A program made the position numbers and the translations under genes. The notes below the pieces were generated by a model. That model made no database searches. It worked only from the letters and a program-made list of their open reading frames with translations, and was not told the DNA's origin. 64,000 nt of DNA from Penicillium oxalicum (Eukaryota; Ascomycota; Eurotiomycetes; Eurotiales; Aspergillaceae), in the NCBI RefSeq assembly GCF_001723175.1, contig NC_064656.1:1054001-1118000 (forward strand), in the 5' to 3' direction. This document shows positions 31,784 through 52,261 of the stretch, piece by piece (within the stretch, counting starts at the first letter, position 1; the number at the start of each line of letters is the position of its first letter).

Positions 31784-33472
31784 ATGGCAGATACAATGAA
31801 GCCTTCGACGCAGGACAAAGTTGTCGTGGAAGGGACGGCTGCTGTGGAAGATGTTGAGCGCCTTGACACTCACGCATCCACCTTTGAGCCTCCTCCAATG
31901 CGCCCATGGCAGCGACGAGTTTTAATTTTATCGCTCTGCCTGTCTCTTTTCTTAGGTGCGCTTGACATGACCATCATCGCCACTGCACTACCGACCATCG
32001 CGAATCATCTCAATGTCACCTCCCGAGAGTACGCTTGGATAGGAAGCAGCTATACCTTGGCAACAACCGCTTCAACGCCAGTCTGGGTCAAGATCTCAGA
32101 CATCTTTGGGAGAAAGTCTAGTATCCTGGTGGCTGTATCGATCTTCATGGTCGGAAGCCTCGTGAGTGCTTTGGCCAATTCGAGTGTCTCACTCCTTGCT
32201 GGGAGAGTCGTGCAGGGACTGGGAGGTGGCGGCTCGATTGTTCTCGTGACGGTCATTATTGGCGATGTATTTGCACTTGCAGATCGACCCAAGTACTATG
32301 GTCTCACTGGGATTGCTTTTGCATTGGCAAGTGCCATTGGCCCTGTGCTGGGTGGTGCTTTTACTGACGGGATCGGATGGAGATGGTGCTGTGAGTTGTC
32401 TTTCTCCTCAGATCATTTTGAAGTACTGTATCCCTGCTAGAGAAGGATAGCTTGCTAACATTCTGAAAACATGACAGTCTATATCAATCTTCCATTCGAC
32501 GGAGTCGTCTTGGTCCTACTTTTTTTTACGCTGAATGTGGCCATCGAAAAGGAGTCCCTCGCCAATGGAATACGAAGTATAGATTGGACGGGCTTCCTAT
32601 TGATCATCGGCGGAACCATCTGTTTCTTATACGGACTCGAGACGGGCTCGAGTGGGCTATTACCATGGAAATCTGCGACGGTTATTCTGCTTGTCGTTTT
32701 TGGCGCGACCATCCTGGTGCTTTTCATGGTTTGGGAGGCCAAATTCGCCAAGAACCCTCTCATCCCATTTCGCATTTTCCAAAAGCGAACTTCTGTGGCC
32801 TCATTTGTGGTCGCTTGTTTCCACTCCTTCGTCTTCATATCTTTCGACTTCTTCCTGCCCTTATATTACCAGGTGGTCCTTGAATTCAGTCCCTTGATAT
32901 CCGGTATCACCCTCTTTGCCCTGATCATCCCGATGTCGATATCAACCTTCTTTGGTGGCTTCTATGTCCGGAAAACTGGCGACTATCGGGCCTTAATATT
33001 CATGGGAACTATTCTTTTGACGCTGGGTACGGGCCTCTTTATTGATTTGGGGGTGAGTAAATCGTGGGTCCGCATCATCATCTTTGAAGTTGTGGCGGGC
33101 GTTGGAGCTGGAGTCTTGTTCCAAAGCCCCATGATTGCATTGCAGAGTCACCTTCGTCAGTCAGATATTGCAGCAGCAATGTCGGCGTTCTCATTCCTGC
33201 GGAATCTATCTACTTCTGTTTCAATCGTGATTGGAACTGTTCTGATCCAACAGACCCTCCACTCCGACAGCCTGACCACGGCGATTGACAACAGTAGTAC
33301 GGCCGTCGAGGACAAAAAACTATACGTGCATGGTCTGCGTAACATGTGGATCTTCTACACATGCATGGCATCTCTCACCATCGCCGCCACATGCTTCATC
33401 AAGCCGAAGGTGCTGAAGAAGAAGGAGTCTCAGGAGGAAGTCACAGATGTCGAGGCGAGCACGGAAAAATGA
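31784..33472 (+). CDS. MFS drug:H+ antiporter, DHA2 (14-helix) type
   Basis: Membrane exporter of small molecules driven by protons. Exons 31784-32390 and 32478-33472 give 533 residues. A cytosolic N-terminus of about 45 residues precedes the helices. Helix 1 carries the DHA2 pattern LGALDMTIIATALPTI. The loop motif is KISDIFGRKSS. An antiporter-type motif occurs in ASAIGPVLGGAF, and the junction rebuilds the common GWRWCFYINLP. The C-terminus is charged and cytosolic. It could export a toxic metabolite, but two housekeeping genes separate it from the terpenoid cluster, so membership there is not supported. Confidence 0.93.
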
Positions 33473-39344: not shown

Positions 39345-41034
39345 CTATCCAATAGCCAAGGGAAATTGACCCTTGCCTTCCTCCACGTGGAAGCCCCATT
39401 TTACTCCGGCGTACTTTTCACGCAGCGTTGGCTTGACCGGGAACTTTCCTTTGACTGGGCCCGTGATGGAGACCATGCTCGTCTTGACCTTGGGGGGCTC
39501 TTTCCACACTCCCCCTACAGGCTCGAGATCGTACCGGAGCATGACCATGGCTACGAGAAGCAGGATTTCTGAGCTGGCAAAGTGTCGACCGGGACACACC
39601 GTTGGTGAGACGCCAAAGGTCATGAAGCCACCGGTGCGTCTCCCATCTTGTTTATCGCCCGTGCTCATGAACCGCCGCTCGTCAAAGACGGCTTGGCTCT
39701 CCCCCCACACATCAGGGTGTTGTGCGAGTGGGATGGAAGGCATATTCACAGAGTTGCCAGCCTTGAGAAGATATTTGTCCGCAAGAAGAGTGTCCTTTAT
39801 CACGATCCGCATGGGTGACGAGTTGGACCGGAATCGGAGAACCTCCTGGAATGCGGAGAGCAAAAGTGGACATTTCTCTCGAATGGAGGTCAGGTCGATG
39901 CTATGCGAGCCGTCGTCGGCCACCCTGAGCGCGTTGAGCTCGATCTCTTGGCGAAGTTCCTCCAGAAGTTGGGGCCGGGAATGGAAATCAAACATGCACC
40001 AGAACATGGCGGGGACCGTGTTGGAAACGAACGCCAAGAGCATGCTGACTTCCAGTAAGCAGTATTCTTCGAGTGAGAGGCCACTTCCCATGGTTGCCTT
40101 GAAGCGCACATTAGCCAGCTCAGAAGCTTGCTTGTGGCCATCTGCTTGGGTGTATTTGTAGACTGCATCTGCAACCTGTTGACGAGCGTAGTATGGCTTG
40201 CGCGCCAGGAGTGACGGCCAGATATTAGGCAGGAGGAGGCCGAGGCCACCTTCAAAATCCCTGCGAGAGCCGTTAGATATACAGCACCAGTTGACTGGGG
40301 GGCCTACTCGCCCGCGGGTGATTCTTCACTTACCACCAGAGGTCCTGGATCTTCTTGTCGGCGTACGGGTTCAAAGGGCCATAAGTGGCTTCAGTGCTGG
40401 CAGCCATGGTGGCATCTTTGCACCATCCGTATAGGTCGAAAGTGGAAGTCTGACTGAGTTGCTCAATAAATGGCTGAATCAACCGAATCATATGAATATT
40501 CAATTTATCCAACGGTTTCCCAACTAAAGTCGGGATCATGGAATGCATAATTCGCAGGCCCAGACCCTCACCACCCGCGTCTTTATCTCTGAGGATGTGC
40601 AAGGATTTAGGATTCTTGATCCCGGAGATGGACTTTGCACTGAACAAGAGCAGCGGACTAAAAGTGAGTGTCTTTGAATTGCGCTGAACCGCCTGAACCA
40701 GGTCGGGCGAAGTCACAACGTAGAACTTGTTGACCAGCATGTCCAAGCCGATGATGGGCTTGTCGCGGTGCTTTTTGCTAAGTGGACGAGTCAATTCGGG
40801 TGTCATATTTCCTGGGGGGAGGCAACTTCTACTTTGACCAGTTCGGCACAACACTTACGCTTGATCACCCCAATGTCCGACTCCATTCCACAAAAGGCCG
40901 AATGCGTGTCCCACGATCGGGATGCCGTTGGTCACCATGGGCGGTTCGCGAGGATCATAACGACGGCCATGGAGGAGAATCAACCCCAGCGCCACCACGG
41001 CACCGAGGATCAAAAGGTGCGTCGTCTCGATCAT
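39345..41034 (-). CDS. Cytochrome P450 with CYP7/CYP8-like features (terpenoid cluster)
   Basis: Haem-thiolate enzyme, membrane-anchored, probably oxidising the cluster terpenoid. Exons 41034-40859, 40777-40334 and 40260-39345 give 511 residues. An N-terminal anchor (LLILGAVVALGLILL) is followed by a Pro-rich hinge (DPREPP). The K-helix ExxR is E346-VL-R349. The haem ligand is Cys429 in TFGVSPTVCPGRHFA. That loop lacks the usual Gly and Arg of FGxGxRxCxG. The I-helix reads AFVSNTVPA (283-291), where most P450s have A-G-x-D/E-T-T. This N-T pattern is known from CYP7/CYP8 types such as prostacyclin synthase. The acceptor at 40778 was chosen because it restores DQAKKHRDKP in phase. Confidence 0.92.
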
Positions 41035-41107
41035 ACCGATATGGGGTTGTAAACTGGAATCACCCGATTGTCATGGCAGCCTTTGGCAATTGGCCTCTCT
41101 TTGTTAG

Positions 41108-41142
41108 AAAAAAAAGGGGGGGGGGGGGGGGGGGGGGGGGGG
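41108..41142 (+). repeat. A8-G27 homopolymer tract
   Basis: Eight A residues are followed directly by 27 G residues (41116-41142), about 75 nt upstream of the P450 start codon. It is either a true slippage-prone tract or an assembly-sensitive length. Confidence 0.85.
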
Positions 41143-42434
41143 AACGGCCAGATAATGAATGTCCGACGCGGCTGCGCATGGAGCTAACCAAACTATGGGC
41201 TGTCTACTCTCCTCGAGTACACCGCATAGTGCGTAATGCGTGCAGTTTGGAGCCGCGAGCAGCCATTAGTCAGACCAGAGTCGGTTCGAGTCAACTCCTC
41301 TTGAGGTAATGGAACTTGGTCAGTACCGAGATGTCTCAACTCCCAACGGGACCTCTCGTTGGCACCGGAGAAAGCTTAGACCATCCACTCTCCACACTTC
41401 GCTTACAGTGTTCGTTTCCGCGTTTTCTATCATCCACCATGTACTGTCTGTGCCAGTATATACTTCCAGGTAGTATATAAATTAATTTCCGGCGGGTAGA
41501 TCTTTCCTGTCTAGGCTGCCACAGCTTTTCTGAGGACGCTCAGCTTCCACAGATTCACTGAGGAAATGTCATCACCGGCTCAACTCCTGTGATCGTTGCC
41601 ACAATTGAACTCGCGCGAAGTGTTCCACACGACGGCAGGTCAGCGGACATCTCTGTGCCTAACTACCTACAGTACAGTACTGCCCTCCAAATGCATCTCA
41701 CCGCCTGTCCTATACTCACGTCACATTGAAGTGCTCCTATCGCAGATCACGACTAAAGTTCTGTTTTATGCAGTAGTCTGGAGCGTTCTTCCTCTCGTCT
41801 TTCATCGATCATTATCTAGCTTCTCTACCCAGTTCCACCTCCCCTGTCCTTACACATCCCCCATTTGACCAACATATTTTGTTGGTTCTCATCAGTAGTA
41901 TTCTCCTCATCCCACAAGACCAAGGCCGTCGAGTCGGCGAAGACCATCGGTAGTCCCGAGTCACACTCACTCGTCGTCGAGCCAGTGAGGCTGAGGGACT
42001 GTGATTCGTACCTACCATTTGAAATCTCAAATGCTGCGGTATTATTGGACCCCCTTCCTTTCTTTTCTTCGGGCAACCGCAAACGATGTCTACTGTCATA
42101 TCAGATCCGACAAGGTTGACTCCTATTCGAACCTGTTCTTTGCCGTGTCAAACATATCCCAGCCTCTCCAGGAACAACTAAATGAAGATCAAAGCCCTCT
42201 TGATGCTTCCTGTAGATTGACCTTTGCTCGTTGTCGAAACGGGTGTTTTCCGAGTGAAGCACCACGAGCTAGGTCACGTCTATCAACCAAATCAGACATC
42301 TCAGGGTCGGCAAGGGGATGAGGACGGGACTACCACGGAAGTAACAGAAATGGAGCGCCAAGAGTTGGCGAATATTATCCGGTATATGCATGCAAGGCTG
42401 AGGTTTGACTCGATTTGCCAATTGGCCATCGCTT

Positions 42435-42450
42435 GGGGGGGGGGGGGGGG
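42435..42450 (+). repeat. G16 homopolymer tract
   Basis: Sixteen consecutive G residues in gene-free DNA of the cluster. Confidence 0.85.
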
Positions 42451-42563
42451 AAAGCCCGAAATGGGTAGTTCATCCAATTAGTTGAACCATCCTTGTCCCT
42501 GGTCGAAAAAGTTTCATCTGCACCCTACTACTCTCCTTTCCTGTTCCGCCCCACTATGCCGCA

Positions 42564-42586
42564 AATAGTATTGACTCAATACTATT
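42564..42586. repeat. Perfect 23-bp palindrome
   Basis: Two 11-bp arms (AATAGTATTGA and its complement) around a single C. A second, shorter inverted repeat (ATTGA...TCAAT) overlaps its right side. It could be a dimer-type regulator site or a chance AT-rich hairpin. Confidence 0.5.
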
Positions 42587-43564
42587 GAGTACTGTCAATT
42601 TTTAGTGTACTGGCTGCCTGCTATGCCATCATTGATGTACACGCCATTAGCGTTGAAGCGCTGTTACAAAGGGAGATCGAGGATCGGAGGAATCTGGCCT
42701 CTCATCTTGTTTGGATGATCCTGTAGGTTCGTAATGTATTCTAACCGATTTGGTATTTCCCATTTCCAGAAATACGCCTCCAGCTCAGGATGGAGCAATG
42801 AGAAAGAGCGGGATAGGTGCTTGAGCAGTATGTTATTCTCAGGGCGAATGGTCCGGGTCGCTTGGGAGGTCAAGACCCAGTCGTATCCACTTAGGTACTC
42901 CTTCCGCGAGGCACATGTGTCCACAGCGGATTCTCTGAAAATTGGAATCGGTGAAACAGGCTAGCCGATTGAGCTTATACAACAGGCCTCCAATCTTACT
43001 GGGTAGCTATAGTGGCTGACCAGCAGATCGTGATGATGAAGGATTCCATCTGTGAGTGGCAAAGGAAGAACCATTTATTCCAACCTAGTAGGAGTGGAGA
43101 CTGGGTCATCTCCTGCACTGATGCGTCGGACTAGATCGCTGCCGGTCTGTCCGATCACGTGCAAGGGCTTTTCGTCAATTGAGATCAAACACAACATGTA
43201 GACGGAACAGCACACTGGCACAGATCACAATATGGCCTATGTACTGAGTACATGATCTCGAGAAGGCTCTCCACTACACTTAGAAAGTTAAGTATAAGAC
43301 AAGGTGTGCGGTCGCTCTGGATGGTGGGATCGTTCTTCCTCCTCGGAGCCCAGTGGTCTCTGTCATTGGAATGAATAACTGATCGAATGACGACGATCGC
43401 ATTCAGCAGCAGACAGTATTGATCCAAATCTGCAGCCTATCCGTTCCATGAAGCACATTCCAAGCTTTACCAGCGCTGAGTAAGAGAGGAGGGAGTCAAG
43501 AAAGGAAAGTTCAAGTCAATCTCTAGCTTTGGAAGATTTCTGGTGTTAAAGTGCTATACCGAGT

Positions 43565-44677
43565 CTATTTATCTCGCCGCGATATTTTCTTGAGAGTTGA
43601 CCGGAGGGCGACTTTGAGGTCTTCATGCTCACCTCCAATTTGATCAATCTGTGCCTCAAGATCACGTTCCTCGGCAATTTCCACCCTCCGAAAGCAATTC
43701 TCAATATCGACCTCGCAAAAGAGCTGTTTCGCCCGGTCCTCTGCTTGAACGCTGGGTCTTCCGTAGCAGAGACTGAGCAAGGCCTTCTGTTCAGAATTGC
43801 AAAGCTCAAAAGCCTTGATAGCGACCCATGAGCACTTGTTATCCCGTATGTCTGTCCCAACCTTGCCAGTAGTGTTCGGATCCCCGAACACGTCAAGATA
43901 ATCATCCTGGACTTGAAAATACCATCCCATTCGAAGAAGAACCCTTTGCACAATCTCCACGGTCTTCGGATCCGCAAGTTGAAGATAATACAGGGCCAGC
44001 ATCACGGGAAGACAGAAACTGTAGAATGCAGTTTTGTTCTCTGCGATAAATGTGTAGCGCTCCATGGTCATATCAGCGAGGTGACATTGGTCGCTGGTCG
44101 TCATGTCGGCAAGCTGACCGAGCTCTGTCCGAAATGCGGCTTCATGGAAAAGCGCCTCTAACTGGCTATAGCACGGATGATCGAGGAAGTAATGCCGTAG
44201 GAGTGCCCTAATTGATGATTTGATCAAGCACGCATCGTTCACGGCACTGAGCCCAACCCCATCTCGGCGATACCAGCAAGGTTGACCGCGACGGTACTCT
44301 GAGGCGTCCATTATGTCGTCCCAAATCAGGTATGCAGCCTGAAAGAACTCGGTGAGCCAGCCCAGGATGCTGAGATGCCGAGTCTTTCGTGGGCTCAGAG
44401 GTTGAGATGACATGAGCCGACCAGTGCTCAGGACAATGCAACCGCGGTTGAGTTTTCCGCCTTGGACGTTGTACTTCACACACTGCACCGTCCCGGATGA
44501 TCATGTTTCATAGCGTTAGTTTGGACTGTGAGACGAACAATAGAAGGGTTGGCGAAAAGCGCATACACTGAGGAATTGAGCTGAAAGTGCATCAGGAACG
44601 CCATTACGAATGAACTCATTCTCTAAATCTGTCAGGACAGACGGTAGGACAGCCTGTAGGGTGTCTCTCTCCGCCAT
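43565..44677 (-). CDS. Farnesyl/polyprenyl diphosphate synthase paralogue (terpenoid cluster)
   Basis: Condenses isopentenyl diphosphate with allylic diphosphates to give the linear precursor for the cyclase. Exons 44677-44567 and 44482-43565 give 342 residues, near the FPP synthase norm. The ATG at 44677 (MAERDTLQ) was chosen because no upstream in-frame ATG exists and the context GAGATGG is good. The intron joins AQFLS to CVKYNVQGGKLNRG, the normal FPP synthase sequence. The first Asp motif is DDIMD (92-96) and the second DDYLD (230-234); QxxxDD and KVGTDI patterns are kept. Residue -5 before the first motif is Ala (87) instead of the usual Phe. Its position next to a sesquiterpene-type cyclase indicates a dedicated, duplicated supply enzyme. 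Confidence 0.92.
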
Positions 44678-46503
44678 CTCTAAATGCGATCGATATGCCT
44701 CGGTTGCAAAAAGGCCAGGAAATTCCAACTGCCGCCAGCTTTCGGCAGTCAAAAGGAACGTATAATGAGACAAGAAGATAGACCACAGTCTTGATGAGAA
44801 GAAAAATTCTAACTAAATAATGAAGGGGTCTAGGAAATCAATCACTCCCAAGCTCCTTCCGCATAGAGAATGATGCAGAGCGGTCTTGGTAATTCCACTC
44901 CGTTTAAGGTTATTCACCACCGAGGCAAAAGAATTAGCGGGAGACCACGCTATTGAGGATCGGTCATAGTACGTAGAGATTAGTATAGAAAATAGAAGAT
45001 AAAAATAATTTTGCCGTTCTGGGAAGGTCGGAATCCTTAACAGGACACATGAGGACATAGCGGGTCAGAAGCTGTCTTCCTAACCATGAGGCGACAAATC
45101 ATTTGCTTGATTCCACCACGTTTTGTTTTGAGTATAATGTGGATCGGGGGCTGGCAGGTTGTTCATGCGAACTTGTGAATTTCTCTGCTACAGATGGCTC
45201 CTGCAATTGAGCTCGAGCCTCCGGTGTATGTAGCCACCATTATGCTGTGTAACTCAGTCTCTCAGGGTGCTGTACATGGTCACGAGGGGTTGATTGGCTC
45301 TTCCATTTTATGCGGGAGATGATCATTCACCGACCCGTCATACTAGCACAAATCATGCGTCGAGTCTACACAGTCGACCTCCATCTTCAGGATTCAGGAT
45401 GGGGGTGCAGGAAGGGTGCTTGAGAAAGTCAGGGTGTGCTGGGGATGTAAGCCACCATATGCATTCTATCATCATCGCCCTCTAGCAGATTGATCCACTT
45501 CTGTCCCAGCATGGAAAGATGGAAAAATTCCACACTACCAGATTGGCATAATGACATACCACCTGCATATGATAAACAAACTGTGTAGCGGATCGGCATC
45601 CTGGACATTCTATGCCTCTAAGTGGGTTCCTCGTGATCTATGCATTGGGTCACTGCAGGTTCTACCGTCATCCATGGGTACCTAGTAGTAATTAAATACT
45701 GCGTCTCGTTCCTATGAGTGTCTTCCAAAGAAGCTTGCCGGTTTCTGCCTCATGCAGTCAAAAGTCTTGTGCGACCTAGAAACTTTAGGCCTACAAAGAA
45801 ACATCTAGCCGTATTCAATCAATAGGTATGAGGATTTCAGCCAAGTTTTGACGTAGCTCATTATGAGTCCGAGCCAGTAAAAAATCCCTCAAGGCGACCC
45901 AGGAGGAACTCTGGTACTTCCCGTCTACATATTAGAGACAGGCCGAGTCTGTCCACCTGCATCTATTTTTTTCGAAGGCCGTGCGATCGGACCCTGCCGC
46001 TATGTATGGGTGTGACTGATTCAAGGAGCAATTCCGAGCTCCTATGACTTTCAACCGAAAATTGATAGCCCAATCTATCACGTTTTCAGGGCCTACGTGG
46101 CGGGGATCCCGAGGCATATGCCCTTGTCAGTGGCCACGGTGCTAAGATAGACTCTGTATCCAACGCCACGCACTCCCGATGGCCATGCTTTCCTACAGAC
46201 TGGAGGGACCTATACGGACAAGGGTTGGGTCTCAAAACCAGATTTTACAGATAGGGCGAAAAGCGGATAGACGCCTTAGGTTCAATATCCGAGGTTCCAG
46301 CAATAGGAACTTGATTTGATCATCTCAGTGCGTGAACAGTGGGCCAGGTCAACTGTGGAACTAAGCTGGCCGTTTGACCAAGTGACAATTTTCCGTTTCC
46401 TTTTCGAACGCAGACGAGACGGCTCACTTTAGTTGAAAGCTGATGTGAATTGATTTGTATAGGTACAATATGAAGAATGAGAGATGCTTCACCCCTCAAA
46501 CTG
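44678..46503. other. Intergenic within the cluster
   Basis: About 1.8 kb between the prenyl synthase start and the cyclase stop. Only short random frames are seen. No transporter or regulator gene is present here. Confidence 0.5.
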
Positions 46504-47570
46504 TTAATCACAGTAGGGTGGCAGATAGCCCTCGTCTTCAAATAACTCGAAAAGGTGGTAGCGGCGGTGGGAGGTACACAGAAGAATCCAACCATTGATG
46601 TAATCTCGCACTACTCTCTTCATGTCCTCTCGACTTCCCAGGATCTCATACACTGAGTGTACAACTTGCGGGGCGTAACTTGTCAAGTGTTTGAGGACGT
46701 CCAGATGGGATAGTCCGTGCGTCTCCGAGAAATTGGCCACAAAATTACCTGTTTCCTGTTCGATGATAAACTCTTTGTAGTAAGAGAGAATATCGTTCGT
46801 AAAATCAGTGAACAGGACAAGCTCTTGCACGACGGGGAAGAATCGGATCAGGTTCTCTTGTTCCGGGTAGGACGCCTTAGGCCATAGCAATGAGATGAGA
46901 ATCTCAGCTGCCCCAACTTTGGTGCGTAGAAACATCGGCATCAGTCGAGTCTTGGCTGAGAACTTAAAGTCGGACTGTTCCATCTCATATTCAATGATAC
47001 GGCCGTTGACGTAGTCGAAAGCGGACTTGATGATTGTCGAATGGCAATAAGGTCCGTAAAACCGGCCAAGATATCGAAGGTGTTTATCGAAGCCGTTAAG
47101 TAGCGGGTGATGATGATCGTTGTTGAGCGCAAAACTGACAGAAAGTTAGTTCAAAGTGCTTCTCATCTTGAACGCTCTTTATCGAGCTCCACTGACTTTT
47201 GACAAAAGGAGCGAAGTTCGTCAAGGAATGATAACGCAATATCATCCACTAGGAACATGTAGAGAAATTGAATGGCGCAAAGAACTTTGTTCTCGAATGG
47301 CAGGGATTTATAGGCGTTGAGAGTGAGGGTCACCGATAGCTTCAGAACGCGATGGACAGCTTTTTCAATCTTCGGTCCCAGATTCTGGGATTTGAAATAT
47401 GCCCAGACGGCGACTTCAAGCTCCGAATCCTTGACAAGTGGTGCGTGGCGGTCAAAGTCGACTCCCTCGAGAAACGATTTGATCAACGACTTGATCACAT
47501 CTTTATCGGTAGATTCACCAGTATCGAGGCCATGGTAGACGAAAGCACTTTCTGGACGAACAGAAGACAT
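46504..47570 (-). CDS. Terpene cyclase of the trichodiene-synthase (TRI5) family
   Basis: Class I terpene cyclase that ionises farnesyl diphosphate with Mg2+ and closes a ring system. Exons 47570-47197 and 47134-46504 give 334 residues; an in-frame ATG at 47618 would add 16. The intron has a GTCAGT donor and an ACTAAC branch point. The Asp-rich region is VDDIALSFLDEL (D109, D110, D117). The NSE triad is NDILSYYKE (N238, S242, E246). A basic RRY motif lies near residue 315. These match the TRI5 family, whose members make trichodiene and other sesquiterpenes. The exact product cannot be told. At 334-350 residues it is somewhat shorter than better-known members. The upstream 0.94 kb is shared with the divergent fusion gene. 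Confidence 0.9.
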
Positions 47571-48511: not shown

Positions 48512-51500
48512 ATGACCATCTTCCGACAGATCAAACGGAAGGACAATCCGGCCCCAGCCCGTTCCTCCAACATCACCATCCCCGAGACGTCCGTCCGGTA
48601 AATGAAGATAAAAGATCGATTTACTTTTATAGACCCAGCTAATGACATCGATAGACAGCAACCGTCTGTACCTCCTACACACGACCAGAATGATTACAAG
48701 AACCTCTATCGACGATCCATTGATCAGCCCGAAGATTTTTGGTCTTCGATGGCCACAGATCATCTGCAATGGGACAGTCCATTTCGTAGCGTCTATTTGA
48801 ATGGTGCTGACGCCAGCACCCATTCTTGGTTTGCGGGAGGGAAACTGAACGCTTGTTTCAACTGTGTCGATCGACATGCATCGCACAACCCCCACAAAAT
48901 GGCTATTCTCTATGAACGAGATGAGCCCACTAGTACGCCGGAAGGAATGACGTTCGCGGAGCTACTCAGAGACGTATCGAAGTTGTCCTGGGTGTTGAAA
49001 GACCTTGGCGTTCAACAGGGTGAAGTAGTAACCGTGTACATGCCGAATATTCCGGAAGCAATTGTGGGTATGCTGGCATGTGCCCGCATTGGCGCAGTTC
49101 ATTCGGTTGTGTTTGCTGGTTTCTCATCTCAGTCGCTCCGAGGACGATTGGACGACGCCAAATCAAAAGTCATCCTCACGGTCGATGAAGGTGTCCGGGG
49201 TGGCAAGGTCATTCCCATGAAAAACCTGGTTGAAGACGCACTTGTTGAATATGAAGGTCCCAGAGTGAAATGTCTTGTTCTCAGGAGGACCAAGAATCCG
49301 GTCCCATGGTGCCATAGAAGTACCGACTTCAATTGGCATGAAGAATGTGCCAAGTGGCCGTCCTACTTTGCACCGGTGTCAATGGGGGCGGAAGACCCTT
49401 TGTACCTGCTCTATACTTCAGGGTCGACGGGGAAGCCCAAGGGCCTGATGCATTCCACTGCAGGATATCTCCTAAGCTGCGCTGTCTCGGGCAAATACGC
49501 GCTGGACCTCAAACCAGCCGACGTCATGTTTTGCGCCGGCGACGTCGGCTGGATCACTGGTCACAATTATCTCGTTTACAGCCCGCTATTACTTGGAATT
49601 ACGACCGTGATATTCGAGGGAACGCCAGCATACCCTGATTTTGATCGATTCTGGCAGATTCTCAGTCGATGCAAAGCTTCTCACTTCTATGCAGCACCCA
49701 CAACTCTGCGAATGATCAAAAAGGCTCGTCCCGATGGTAATAAAATGGCCTTGAAAGATTTGAGAGTCATTGCATCAATCGGCGAGCCTCTAGCTCCCAA
49801 TGTTTGGGAGTGGTGTTTCGAGATACTTGGACGTAAAAGGGCCTGTGTCTTGGACGTGAGTTTTGACGAGAATAAGAAAAATTGCAGTGCATCGAAGCTA
49901 ACATTTTACATCAGACATATTTTCAAACTGAGACTGGATGCCACGCGTTTACACCACTGGCCGGTGTTACTCCTATTAAACCCGGTTCCGTTGCTTTGCC
50001 ATTCTTTGGATTCAATCCAGCATTGATTGATCCCGACTCGGGTAAAGAAGTAGACGAAGATGAAGGTCAAGGGTTGCTCGTATTCAAGCGGTCATGGCCG
50101 GGCATTGCGCGTACGGTATGGAGAGACCATGCCAGATACATAAAGACCTATTTCAACGACTCAAGAGGATACTTTGTAAGCAAATTGTTCCTTCTCCCTC
50201 GTTGAGTACTTGCTGAAACTCCGATGAGATCACTGGTGACGGCGCCAGTCGAGATCGGGACGGCTACTACACCATTCTGGGTAGGGTGGACGATGTGGTT
50301 AACATTTCGGGTCACCGTCTGTCAACCGGGGAGATCGAATCTGCTCTTTTGAATCAAGGTAACGCCTACCCAGCGTAGAGAAGTGGAGATTCGGATCTAT
50401 TACTGACTATACACAGGTCCTTTCGCCGAGGTTGCCGTTGTCGGCGTGCAGGACCAAATCACTGGCCAGGCGCTGAATGTCTTTGCCGTCCTCAAAAGGC
50501 CAGGGACTGAAGACAGCAGGGAAATGAGTACATCGGCGCAAGAGCATGTCGGAAAGGCGATCGGGCGGTTTGCTGTTCCCAAAAATGTTTTCATTGTGAA
50601 TGATCTTCCGAAAACGCGATCAGGAAAAATCATGCGACGGATACTCAGGAAAATATTGGAGGGTGAAACCGATCAATTTGGTGATACTTCTACTGTGAGT
50701 CCTCAGAATTCACAAGGGAACGAGGTGTCGGTGGCTAATGAACAAACCGCAGCTGATCCATCCTGATGTCATCTCACACATCGTTGAGCAAGTGAAAGGC
50801 CAGAATGCACCGAGCTCAGGAACCTCGAGGGTAATTGATACGCCTGGCTCAACAGCAGGAAGTGCCTCTTCAATTACAGACTATCCTTACCAATTCTCGG
50901 ATTACGAGCTCACTTTGCTTGATCACATTCTGCCACCTTGCCACATGTTCATGTTCCTCTCATTTGGCGCAGCTTCCATCGAAGGCATCGACGCCCTCCG
51001 CCATGGTGTTGCCCGGTTGAGTGACTCTCTTCCGTTTCTTACTGGTGTAGTGGTGCCATCAAGGCATTGTCAGGATAAAAAGGATGCATTCGAGGTCCAA
51101 CCAGCAGAGAAGGCGTTCCTGCAAAAGTATCCCATGCTCAAGGTGGCATTCAGCCCAAAGATGGATCAAATTACACCAGACGACTTCATCCAACAAGATT
51201 ATTTGCCTATTCCATTCATGATGCCCCCAACAGAGCCCATGCCGCTGGTGCGGTTTCAAGCCAATGTTACAACCCGACGAATCGTGCTATGCGTGGCATA
51301 TAACCATCGGGCATTAGATAGCACGGGCGTCTCGGTCGTTCTCAAGACTCTGGCAAGACTTTGCAGCAGTCCAAAAGACCAAGCCGAGAGCCTGCCTACC
51401 AGTGACGATATTGAGACTTCTACTCGCCAGCGCATCAGGAGCTCTGCATCGAAGGAGCCAGTGCCGCTAGGATGGACACCGGTTCCCCTATCTCTTGATG

Positions 51501-52261
51501 CGGGTGCGACTGAAGATTCCTCACACGAGGCTGTCAGCCGCAAGTTCAGTCTCAGTGCCAGAAAGATCGCGCTGTTGAAAGAAGTTTGCAACTCTGCCTC
51601 GACTGCCGAAGACCACGATGGTTCTGGAAAAAGGCGCCATTGCACGTCCAACGACGTGATCTCGGCCTTGGTTGGAGTTTGCGGCAATGCAGCACGCCGT
51701 GACATCGTGCCGGACTGTGTCTCGCCACCCAGAGTGATCATCGCAGCAAACGTGCGGAAACAGTGCCAACTGCCTCCCAATTACATTGGAAATGTACTTG
51801 TTGCGGCCGAGGCCACAGATCCAATCTCATTAATTTCTTCCCACATGAAGATCCCAGATGATCTCAGAAGTCTGCGCCAGGAAGATCTCACCCAGATATG
51901 TGGCTATGCTCTCGCTCTGCGGGATCAAATTGCTTCTATCTCGGAGAGCTATCTGCGCGGCATTCTGCATACGATCTCGGAAGCTTCCAGCTTTTCGTCC
52001 ATTACCCCTGCTTATGGGAAGAGCATCATTGTGTCAAGCTTGCGCTGGATGGACTTTTATTTGGATTTTGGCCCATTAGGCAAAGTTGAAAGATACGATA
52101 TTCCGGAGACGAAAGTCAAAGGAGTTTGCTGGGTCCTGCCGCTGCATGAGTTGGAGGGCGGATCCGAATCAGAACCGTTTGAGCTCCGATTTGTTCTCGA
52201 GCGCGCCGCCATGGAACGTTTGCAGAAGAATGAATTCTTCAGATGGGTGACCTCGGATTAA
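48512..52261 (+). CDS. Fusion of acetyl-CoA synthetase and BAHD/TRI101-like acyltransferase
   Basis: Six exons: 48512-48597, 48655-49855, 49915-50175, 50229-50358, 50417-50694, 50753-52261, giving 1154 residues. Residues 1-670 are an AMP-forming acetyl-CoA synthetase: [13 protein letters not shown]-loop [11 protein letters not shown] (282-292), QTETG (433-437), catalytic Lys630 in RSGKIMRR. The last exon starts with its C-terminal end ([15 protein letters not shown]) and continues without a stop, through a Gly/Ser-rich linker, into an acyltransferase with HRALD (HxxxD, His837) and a DFGPLG near the end, as in BAHD/TRI101-type enzymes. The start at 48512 gives a 57-nt first intron with the same GCTAATG branch as the last intron. 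I infer that the enzyme makes an acyl-CoA and passes it to the cluster terpenoid. Confidence 0.88.
50695..50752 (+). other. Last intron of the fusion gene, frame switch
   Basis: GTGAGT donor, GCTAATG branch region and GCAG acceptor. If spliced, the synthetase continues into the acyltransferase. If retained, the synthetase frame ends at TGA 50764-50766 with a 23-residue tail, and an ATG at 50738 opens the acyltransferase frame in the same message. Confidence 0.7.

What the first reader, a model, noticed from the sequence alone, without database searches (positions are those of the whole stretch)
48512..52261. Acetyl-CoA synthetase fused to a BAHD/TRI101-like acyltransferase in a terpenoid cluster
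One exon (50753-52261) carries both the C-terminal end of an acetyl-CoA synthetase ([15 protein letters not shown] follows GDTST, as in ordinary synthetases) and a complete acyltransferase with HRALD and DFGPLG, with no stop or intron between them. The fusion therefore does not depend on guessed splicing after 50753. I know of no described enzyme with this layout. It would let one protein activate the acid and transfer it to an alcohol on the cluster terpenoid, bypassing the cellular acetyl-CoA pool.
Basis: partly seen in the sequence, partly recalled or inferred. Interest (0 to 1): 0.92.

Follow-up and report, generated by a model that had tools for sequence, protein, structure and literature searches.

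The report
Acid-activating enzyme fused to acyl-transferring enzyme
In a mould's terpene gene cluster, one gene joins an enzyme that activates a short acid to an enzyme that attaches it to an alcohol, a pairing shared by several Penicillium species and a more distant fungus but not found described in the papers searched.

Summary
The fusion is real at sequence level. The spliced six-exon model (48512-52261) gives 1154 residues, identical to a deposited Penicillium oxalicum protein named only 'Acetyl-coenzyme A synthetase'. Both halves occur together in six other species (five Penicillium, one Arachnomyces; two known only from cut models). In eight rows, P. oxalicum included, the junction is 53-55 residues long between fixed motifs although the linker is only 11-27% identical: strong indirect evidence that it is translated. 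Four of five introns match the genome's ordinary synthetase gene, whose last exon here runs on into a TRI101-like transferase.

The synthetase half is not ordinary: the acetate-pocket tryptophan (Trp414 in Salmonella) is phenylalanine in 7 of 7 readable rows, and a CoA-contacting arginine (Arg584) is glycine or glutamate in 8 of 8.

Most likely it makes a short acyl-CoA (acetyl or slightly larger) and esterifies the cluster's hydroxylated terpenoid. 'Bypassing the acetyl-CoA pool' is not supported. Substrate, product, transcript and activity are untested.

The parts
48512..48597 (+). fusion gene exon 1
   Evidence: model; whole protein identical to P0001
48655..49855 (+). exon 2: ACAS_N and most of the AMP-binding domain; P-loop [11 protein letters not shown]
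49915..50175 (+). exon 3: begins TYFQTETG; the F replaces the acetate-pocket Trp
50229..50358 (+). exon 4: [23 protein letters not shown]
50417..50694 (+). exon 5: AMP-binding_C up to GDTST; catalytic Lys in PKTRSGK; Arg584 position is Gly605
50695..50752 (+). intron 5, 58 nt, same column and phase as the intron before the last exon of the ordinary synthetase gene (L017)
50753..50800 (+). exon 6, synthetase C-terminal tail [16 protein letters not shown]... (residues 653-668)
50801..50884 (+). linker, residues 669-696, low identity but near-constant length in relatives
50885..52261 (+). TRI101-like acyltransferase domain (residues 697-1154) with HRALD (837-841) and DFGPLG, plus stop codon
46504..47570 (-). 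TRI5-like terpene cyclase, two exons (47570-47197, 47134-46504), 334 aa, identical to POX_g08923 (P0022)
43565..44677 (-). FPP-synthase-like prenyl diphosphate synthase, two exons (44677-44567, 44482-43565), 342 aa model, not checked against a deposited protein
39345..41034 (-). cytochrome P450, three exons (41034-40859, 40777-40334, 40260-39345), 511 aa model, not checked against a deposited protein

Best explanation
One protein with two working enzymes on a flexible tether. Step 1 (inferred from family): the N-terminal synthetase adenylates a short carboxylic acid with ATP and transfers it to CoA, giving acetyl-CoA or a slightly larger acyl-CoA. Step 2 (inferred): the C-terminal TRI101-like domain uses that acyl-CoA, through the His of HRALD, to esterify a hydroxyl that the neighbouring P450 puts on the terpene made by the TRI5-like cyclase. 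The fusion fixes 1:1 co-expression and puts the thioester source within about 27 linker residues of its consumer, hung on the C-terminal lid that moves between the two half-reactions. Shown here: the single reading frame, its conservation, the intact catalytic motifs, the altered acyl and CoA contacts, and linkage to a cyclase. Not shown: activity, acid, acceptor, or any channelling. Origin (inferred): a copy of the ordinary synthetase gene, or of a close relative of it, whose last exon became joined to a transferase gene.
For: Open junction exon. Eight of eight hits (P. oxalicum itself included) keep synthetase sequence and transferase in one chain; five of the eight are full length (1129-1154 aa). 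That search admits only proteins of about 635-2020 aa, so standalone transferases could not appear in it, with the transferase alone, covers about 253-805 aa. The distance from GDxST to the transferase motif is 53-55 residues in 8 of 8 while the linker is 11-27% identical to that of P. oxalicum in the other seven. Of the 15 hits (two of them shared), eight carry synthetase-tail residues upstream, one starts in the linker, six start at a Met inside the domain, and none shows an N-terminus of its own. P-loop, catalytic Lys and two of three CoA arginines are conserved. TIGR02188 acetate-CoA ligase equivalog, 808.8 bits over a cut-off of 724.95. HXXXD is present in 7 of 8 rows; the eighth model lacks the stretch. 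A transferase profile finds TRI101 structures (2zba, E 5.1e-8). Four of five introns sit at the same columns as in the genome's ordinary synthetase.
Against: No transcript, protein or product data. Loss of the Arg584 equivalent (8 of 8 rows) could cripple the thioester step: in Methanothermobacter Acs the Arg586 changes cost 34- to 680-fold in kcat, whereas work on the Salmonella enzyme found only about 2-fold, with a 7- to 8-fold higher Km for CoA (PMC10455477, passages). The P. egyptiacum row (P0005) lacks 18 aligned synthetase positions including GWITGH, by a poor gene model or by decay. The transferase scores only weakly against Pfam Transferase, and P0002 does not reach E 0.01 for it. Four of the eight fusion rows have no cyclase row of equal contig length. 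The structure prediction failed (mean pLDDT 36), so nothing is known about domain placement.
Confidence: 0.6

Rival explanations
1. The synthetase half makes strictly acetyl-CoA, and the fusion simply secures acetyl-CoA for acetylation when cytosolic acetyl-CoA is low. The pocket changes are drift.
For: Equivalog-level score for acetate-CoA ligase while the two propionate-CoA ligase models are far below their cut-offs; nearest kin in the genome is the ordinary synthetase, 52.8% identity over 665 aligned positions; Phe is still bulky.
Against: The pocket Trp is described as almost completely conserved in Acs and as controlling acyl range (PMC10455477, passage), and as 100% conserved in the short-chain group of another study (PMC6122825, passage), yet it is Phe in 7 of 7 readable rows, with a neighbouring Val (Val386, pocket role recalled) changed to Ile in 6 of 6. 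Drift would hardly be so uniform when the full-length relatives share only 66-80% identity in this domain.
Confidence: 0.35
2. The gene is transcribed as one but works as two proteins: intron 5 retention stops the synthetase shortly after GDTST, and the transferase is translated separately, for example from an ATG inside the intron or at residue 717.
For: In this genome intron 5 retention reads [11 protein letters not shown]...DPS and stops by 50766. An ATG in the intron is in frame with exon 6 (520-aa frame). Six database models start at a Met inside the transferase.
Against: Linker length and frame are conserved in 8 of 8 rows, which separate proteins would not need. In P0009 the same intron appears to be read in frame without a stop, so a stop-by-retention switch is not conserved. 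A start at residue 717 would lack the LDHILPPCH segment, whose counterpart the standalone paralogue has.
Confidence: 0.12
3. The synthetase half is catalytically weak or dead and serves as a regulatory or targeting part; only the transferase works, on ordinary acyl-CoA.
For: Arg584 equivalent lost in 8 of 8 rows; pocket residues changed; 40 otherwise invariant positions altered; the P. egyptiacum row lacks GWITGH.
Against: P-loop, TGD, GHR and the PKTRSGK lysine are kept in the fusion rows that cover them; one P. nalgiovense model (P0004) reads SAK there and has one further change at GRVDD. In the four full-length relatives the synthetase domain is the better conserved half (66-80% against 57-75%), which argues for purifying selection on it.
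Confidence: 0.15
4. Gene-prediction or assembly artefact joining two neighbours.
For: Several relatives in the database are broken models (P0004, P0006, P0008, P0012).
Against: Both halves in one chain in seven species; the joint is inside one exon here and its length is kept.
Confidence: 0.02

Closest known systems
Acetyl-CoA synthetase (AMP-forming; fungal type, TIGR02188; PDB 7kdn, 7kcp, 7kds)
   Same: Full-length domain order, motifs, C-terminal tail, four intron positions shared with the genome's own copy.
   Different: Pocket Trp to Phe, Val to Ile, CoA-contact Arg to Gly/Glu, Pro to Arg close by; C-terminus runs on into a transferase.
TRI101-like acyltransferases (Pfam TRI-like_N, Transferase; PDB 2zba, 2rkv)
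   Same: HXXXD in the aligned place; profile match E 5.1e-8 to 2zba.
   Different: Very remote in sequence (single-sequence E 0.022 at best); DFGPLG at the position of the BAHD DFGWG motif (motif name recalled); fused to its presumed acyl-CoA source; no reason to expect a trichothecene acceptor.
4-coumarate-CoA ligase::resveratrol synthase fusion protein (PDB 3tsy)
   Same: A CoA ligase joined to the enzyme that consumes its thioester (entry name).
   Different: Man-made, with a polyketide synthase-type partner (recalled; the paper was not held).
NRPS adenylation plus condensation domains
   Same: An adenylating ANL domain and an HXXXD acyl-transfer domain in one chain (fold kinship recalled).
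   Different: No carrier domain among the five Pfam families of P0001, and a CoA-type ligase, so the intermediate would be a free CoA ester.

Membership tests
AMP-forming acetyl-CoA synthetase | ACAS_N + AMP-binding + AMP-binding_C over curated cut-offs, TIGR02188 equivalog | tested here: met
AMP-forming acetyl-CoA synthetase | Adenylation P-loop, GHR and catalytic Lys | tested here: met
   P-loop in 6 of 6 covering rows, GHR in 8 of 8, the Lys of PKTRSGK in 8 of 8 (one row reads SAK)
AMP-forming acetyl-CoA synthetase | Acetate-pocket Trp (Trp414 Salmonella / Trp416 Methanothermobacter) | tested here: not met
   Phe in 7 of 7 covering rows; Trp in 5 of 5 canonical fungal enzymes; importance of Trp: PMC10455477, PMC6122825 passages
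AMP-forming acetyl-CoA synthetase | CoA-contact arginines 191, 526, 584 (Salmonella numbering) | tested here: not met
   191-equivalent kept 6 of 6, 526-equivalent kept 8 of 8, 584-equivalent Gly/Glu in 8 of 8; assignment by counting from the catalytic Lys and by motif, Salmonella sequence recalled
AMP-forming acetyl-CoA synthetase | Acetate-dependent acetyl-CoA formation | not testable with these tools
   needs enzyme assay
TRI101-like / BAHD acyltransferase | HXXXD catalytic motif | tested here: met
   HRALD in 7 of 8 rows, aligned with HGAMD of 2zba; the eighth model lacks the stretch
TRI101-like / BAHD acyltransferase | Pfam Transferase / TRI-like_N over cut-off | tested here: met
   P0001: TRI-like_N 38.4 bits over 27, Transferase 31.9 over 22.7; P0002 only TRI-like_N
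TRI101-like / BAHD acyltransferase | DFGWG structural motif | tested here: inconclusive
   DFG kept in 8 of 8 rows, but followed by PLG, PMG, PIG or ALG
TRI101-like / BAHD acyltransferase | Two-domain BAHD fold | tested here: inconclusive
   fusion model mean pLDDT 36; separate transferase job never accepted
NRPS module | Carrier (T/PCP) domain | tested here: not met
   no such family on P0001 at E 0.001
Terpenoid gene cluster | Terpene cyclase beside tailoring genes | tested here: met
   TRI5 90.1 bits, polyprenyl_synt 228.7, p450 80

The most novel reading that the evidence does not exclude
A carrier-free assembly unit: a synthetase retuned to a non-acetyl short acid and to looser CoA holding (Trp to Phe, Arg584 to Gly/Glu with a new Arg five residues on) hands its fresh acyl-CoA to a transferase tethered to its own moving lid, so that the acyl group reaches the terpenoid largely before mixing with the cell's CoA-ester pool. 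It would work like an NRPS adenylation-condensation pair, with CoA in place of the carrier arm.
Probability: 0.12. Interest if true: 0.85.

Novelty: new variant of a known kind. Interest (0 to 1): 0.62.

Why it matters
Both halves are familiar families, but this order in one chain was not found described in the searches made, and the database names hide the second half. If active, it would be a natural counterpart of engineered ligase-consumer fusions, useful for studying proximity effects in thioester metabolism. It may also be a ready-made module for putting an uncommon short acyl group on terpenoids. The uniform changes at two functional synthetase positions give a direct test of whether fusion and substrate change went together.

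Tried and rejected
Artefact of assembly or annotation: set aside because both halves occur together in six other species and the junction length is kept. Separate start for the transferase: not supported. Splicing switch at intron 5: possible here, but the intron appears open in P0009, so not conserved. NRPS relative: no carrier domain. Prokaryotic relatives of the transferase: the genome-contig scan, with two short peptide patterns, gave 38 matches, none a relative; its reach is limited. Identifying the cluster product through PgfB of P. griseofulvum (69% cyclase relative): three searches found no paper on it, so the product stays unknown. Structure of the fusion: model unusable, so no fold search was run. 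Repeats in the cyclase-fusion intergenic stretch: one short palindrome, nothing more. Six aimed at the fusion or its cluster (1, 0, 2, 0, 18 and 7 papers) and listed no such enzyme; three aimed at PgfB (29, 30, 32) and one at the synthetase pocket (42). I saw listings with abstract openings, plus passages of PMC10455477 and PMC6122825; no paper was read whole.
Full report
What is there. Exon 50753-52261 is a single open frame of 502 codons plus stop. Its first 16 codons are the end of an acetyl-CoA synthetase, the next 28 a linker, and its last 458 a TRI101-like acyltransferase. Splicing six exons gives 1154 residues, letter-identical to a deposited protein of Penicillium oxalicum (P0001), so the window is very probably from that species. 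Pfam finds ACAS_N, AMP-binding, AMP-binding_C, TRI-like_N and Transferase, all over cut-off. A frame of this length and composition would be open by chance with probability about 2e-10.

Is it one protein? I searched about 5.8 billion proteins with the C-terminal 502 residues, under the length limits of the whole chain, about 635-2020 aa. Of 7989 scored candidates, eight passed E 0.001 (P. oxalicum itself among them), and all eight carry both halves, at least in part. Short standalone transferases could not appear in that search. Five rows are full length: P. oxalicum, P. ucsense, P. frequentans, P. egyptiacum and Arachnomyces sp. One P. canescens and two P. nalgiovense models are cut at the N-terminus, and the P. 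egyptiacum row lacks 18 aligned synthetase positions including GWITGH. Between the synthetase motif GDxST and the transferase motif LDHILPPCH (LDNILPPCH in one row) there are 53, 54 or 55 residues in 8 of 8, although the linker of the other seven is only 11-27% identical to that of P. oxalicum. A junction that keeps frame and length while its letters drift is what a translated tether looks like. A second search with the transferase alone (7996 scored, 15 hits, two shared; about 253-805 aa) found no relative with an N-terminus of its own: eight carry synthetase-tail residues, one starts in the linker, and six start at a Met inside the domain, so nothing can be said about what lies upstream in those six. 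A distant standalone paralogue in the same genome begins a few residues before the equivalent motif (28% identity), which places the domain border near residue 697.

Where it came from. The genome's ordinary synthetase (L017, 666 aa) is 52.8% identical over 665 aligned positions, and four of its five introns fall in the same alignment columns as in the fusion, including the one just before the last exon; the first intron does not. In the ordinary gene that last exon ends after 20 residues; in the fusion it runs on into the transferase. So the fusion arose from a synthetase gene with this exon pattern, by joining a transferase to its last exon (inference).

The synthetase half has changed. Comparing eight fusion rows with five canonical fungal enzymes (the genome's own, PDB 7kcp, 7kdn, 7kds, 8rwj), 40 positions are invariant in the canonical set and never that residue in the fusion set, among columns covered by at least five fusion rows. 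Five canonical enzymes are few, so the number 40 is soft. Two positions have known roles. The pocket Trp (Trp414 in Salmonella, Trp416 in Methanothermobacter), said to be almost completely conserved in Acs and to set acyl range (PMC10455477, passage; PMC6122825, passages), is Phe in 7 of 7. The arginine that contacts the CoA 3'-phosphate (Arg584) is Gly in seven and Glu in one of 8, with a new Arg five residues on in 8 of 8. Mutating the Methanothermobacter equivalent cost 34- to 680-fold in kcat, whereas a Salmonella study found about 2-fold (PMC10455477, passages). Other catalytic features are kept: the P-loop in 6 of 6, GHR in 8 of 8, and the catalytic Lys in 8 of 8 (one row reads SAK for SGK); the Arg191 equivalent is Arg in 6 of 6. 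Residue numbering was transferred by motif and by counting from the catalytic Lys, with the Salmonella sequence recalled. The domain still passes the acetate-CoA ligase equivalog cut-off (808.8 against 724.95 bits) and is far below the cut-offs of the two propionate-CoA ligase models. It is also the better conserved half in the four full-length relatives (66-80% against 57-75%), which argues against a dead domain.

The neighbourhood. Divergently transcribed beside the fusion is a TRI5-like cyclase (46504-47570, minus; identical to POX_g08923), then an FPP-synthase-like gene (43565-44677) and a P450 (39345-41034). Beyond these lie SRP14 and a MIF4G protein and, on the other side, Inp1, which mark the cluster's likely limits. 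The cyclase search (43 hits) gives contig lengths equal to those of the fusion rows for P. oxalicum, P. ucsense, P. frequentans and Arachnomyces, and to the transferase piece P0019 for Aspergillus glaucus. I take this to mean the same contigs; gene distances could not be read. The other four fusion rows (P. nalgiovense twice, P. egyptiacum, P. canescens) have no cyclase row of equal contig length. In a tree of 26 of the 43 cyclases the fusion-linked ones fall in three separate places, so the association is old or repeated. Many close cyclases showed no fusion in these searches, but clustering of the database at 90% identity can hide species. One cyclase, PgfB of P. griseofulvum, carries a given name, but I could not find its paper.

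How it most likely works. The synthetase makes a short acyl-CoA, and the tethered transferase uses it to esterify the hydroxylated terpenoid. Both steps are inferred from family membership. The tether hangs on the C-terminal lid, which swings between the two half-reactions in this family (PMC10455477, passage). Whether the acid is acetate is open: the equivalog score says acetate, the pocket change says perhaps something a little larger. There is no carrier domain among the Pfam matches, the product would be a diffusible CoA ester, and the one structure prediction was unusable (mean pLDDT 36), so nothing can be said about the distance between active sites.

Known or new. Six paper searches aimed at the fusion or its cluster (listings and abstract openings seen) listed no such enzyme; the library lacks most subscription journals. 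The proteins are deposited, but the names shown mention at most the synthetase. The nearest analogue met was a 4-coumarate-CoA ligase::resveratrol synthase fusion (PDB 3tsy; that it is man-made is recalled). I file it as a new arrangement of two known families, with a synthetase half that fails two tested features of ordinary acetyl-CoA synthetases.

Noticed in passing
window 43565-44677: The cluster's FPP-synthase-like protein has A and Y where the genome's ordinary FPP synthase (L020) has F and F, five and four residues before the first DDxxD motif. From recall, changes there can lengthen the product, so it might make something longer than FPP.
   Followed up: partly
window 50695-50752: Intron 5 retention would end the synthetase shortly after its normal C-terminus, and an ATG inside the intron is in frame with the transferase exon; in relative P0009 the same intron appears to be open.
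   Followed up: partly
L018 (G000:C5:3803500-3810000): A standalone acyltransferase paralogue (28% identity) lies next to a 562-residue frame that by eye looks like an FAD-dependent (Baeyer-Villiger type) monooxygenase, at a contig end; possibly another small cluster.
   Followed up: no
window 41050-43560 and 44680-46500: Long stretches between cluster genes in which no gene was recognised; a 98-residue frame at 42664-42960 (minus) has no Pfam match and could be a gene relic.
   Followed up: partly
window 32459-33472: Major-facilitator transporter that also matches Pfam TRI12 (efflux pump, 35.1 bits over a cut-off of 23.2), separated from the cluster by other genes including a MIF4G gene; probably not part of it.
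   Followed up: no
P0004, P0006, P0008, P0012 (P. nalgiovense, P. canescens) and P0005 (P. egyptiacum): Several relatives exist only as cut or oddly spliced gene models; two (P0008, P0012) lack the HXXXD stretch and P0005 lacks GWITGH. They need re-annotation.
   Followed up: no
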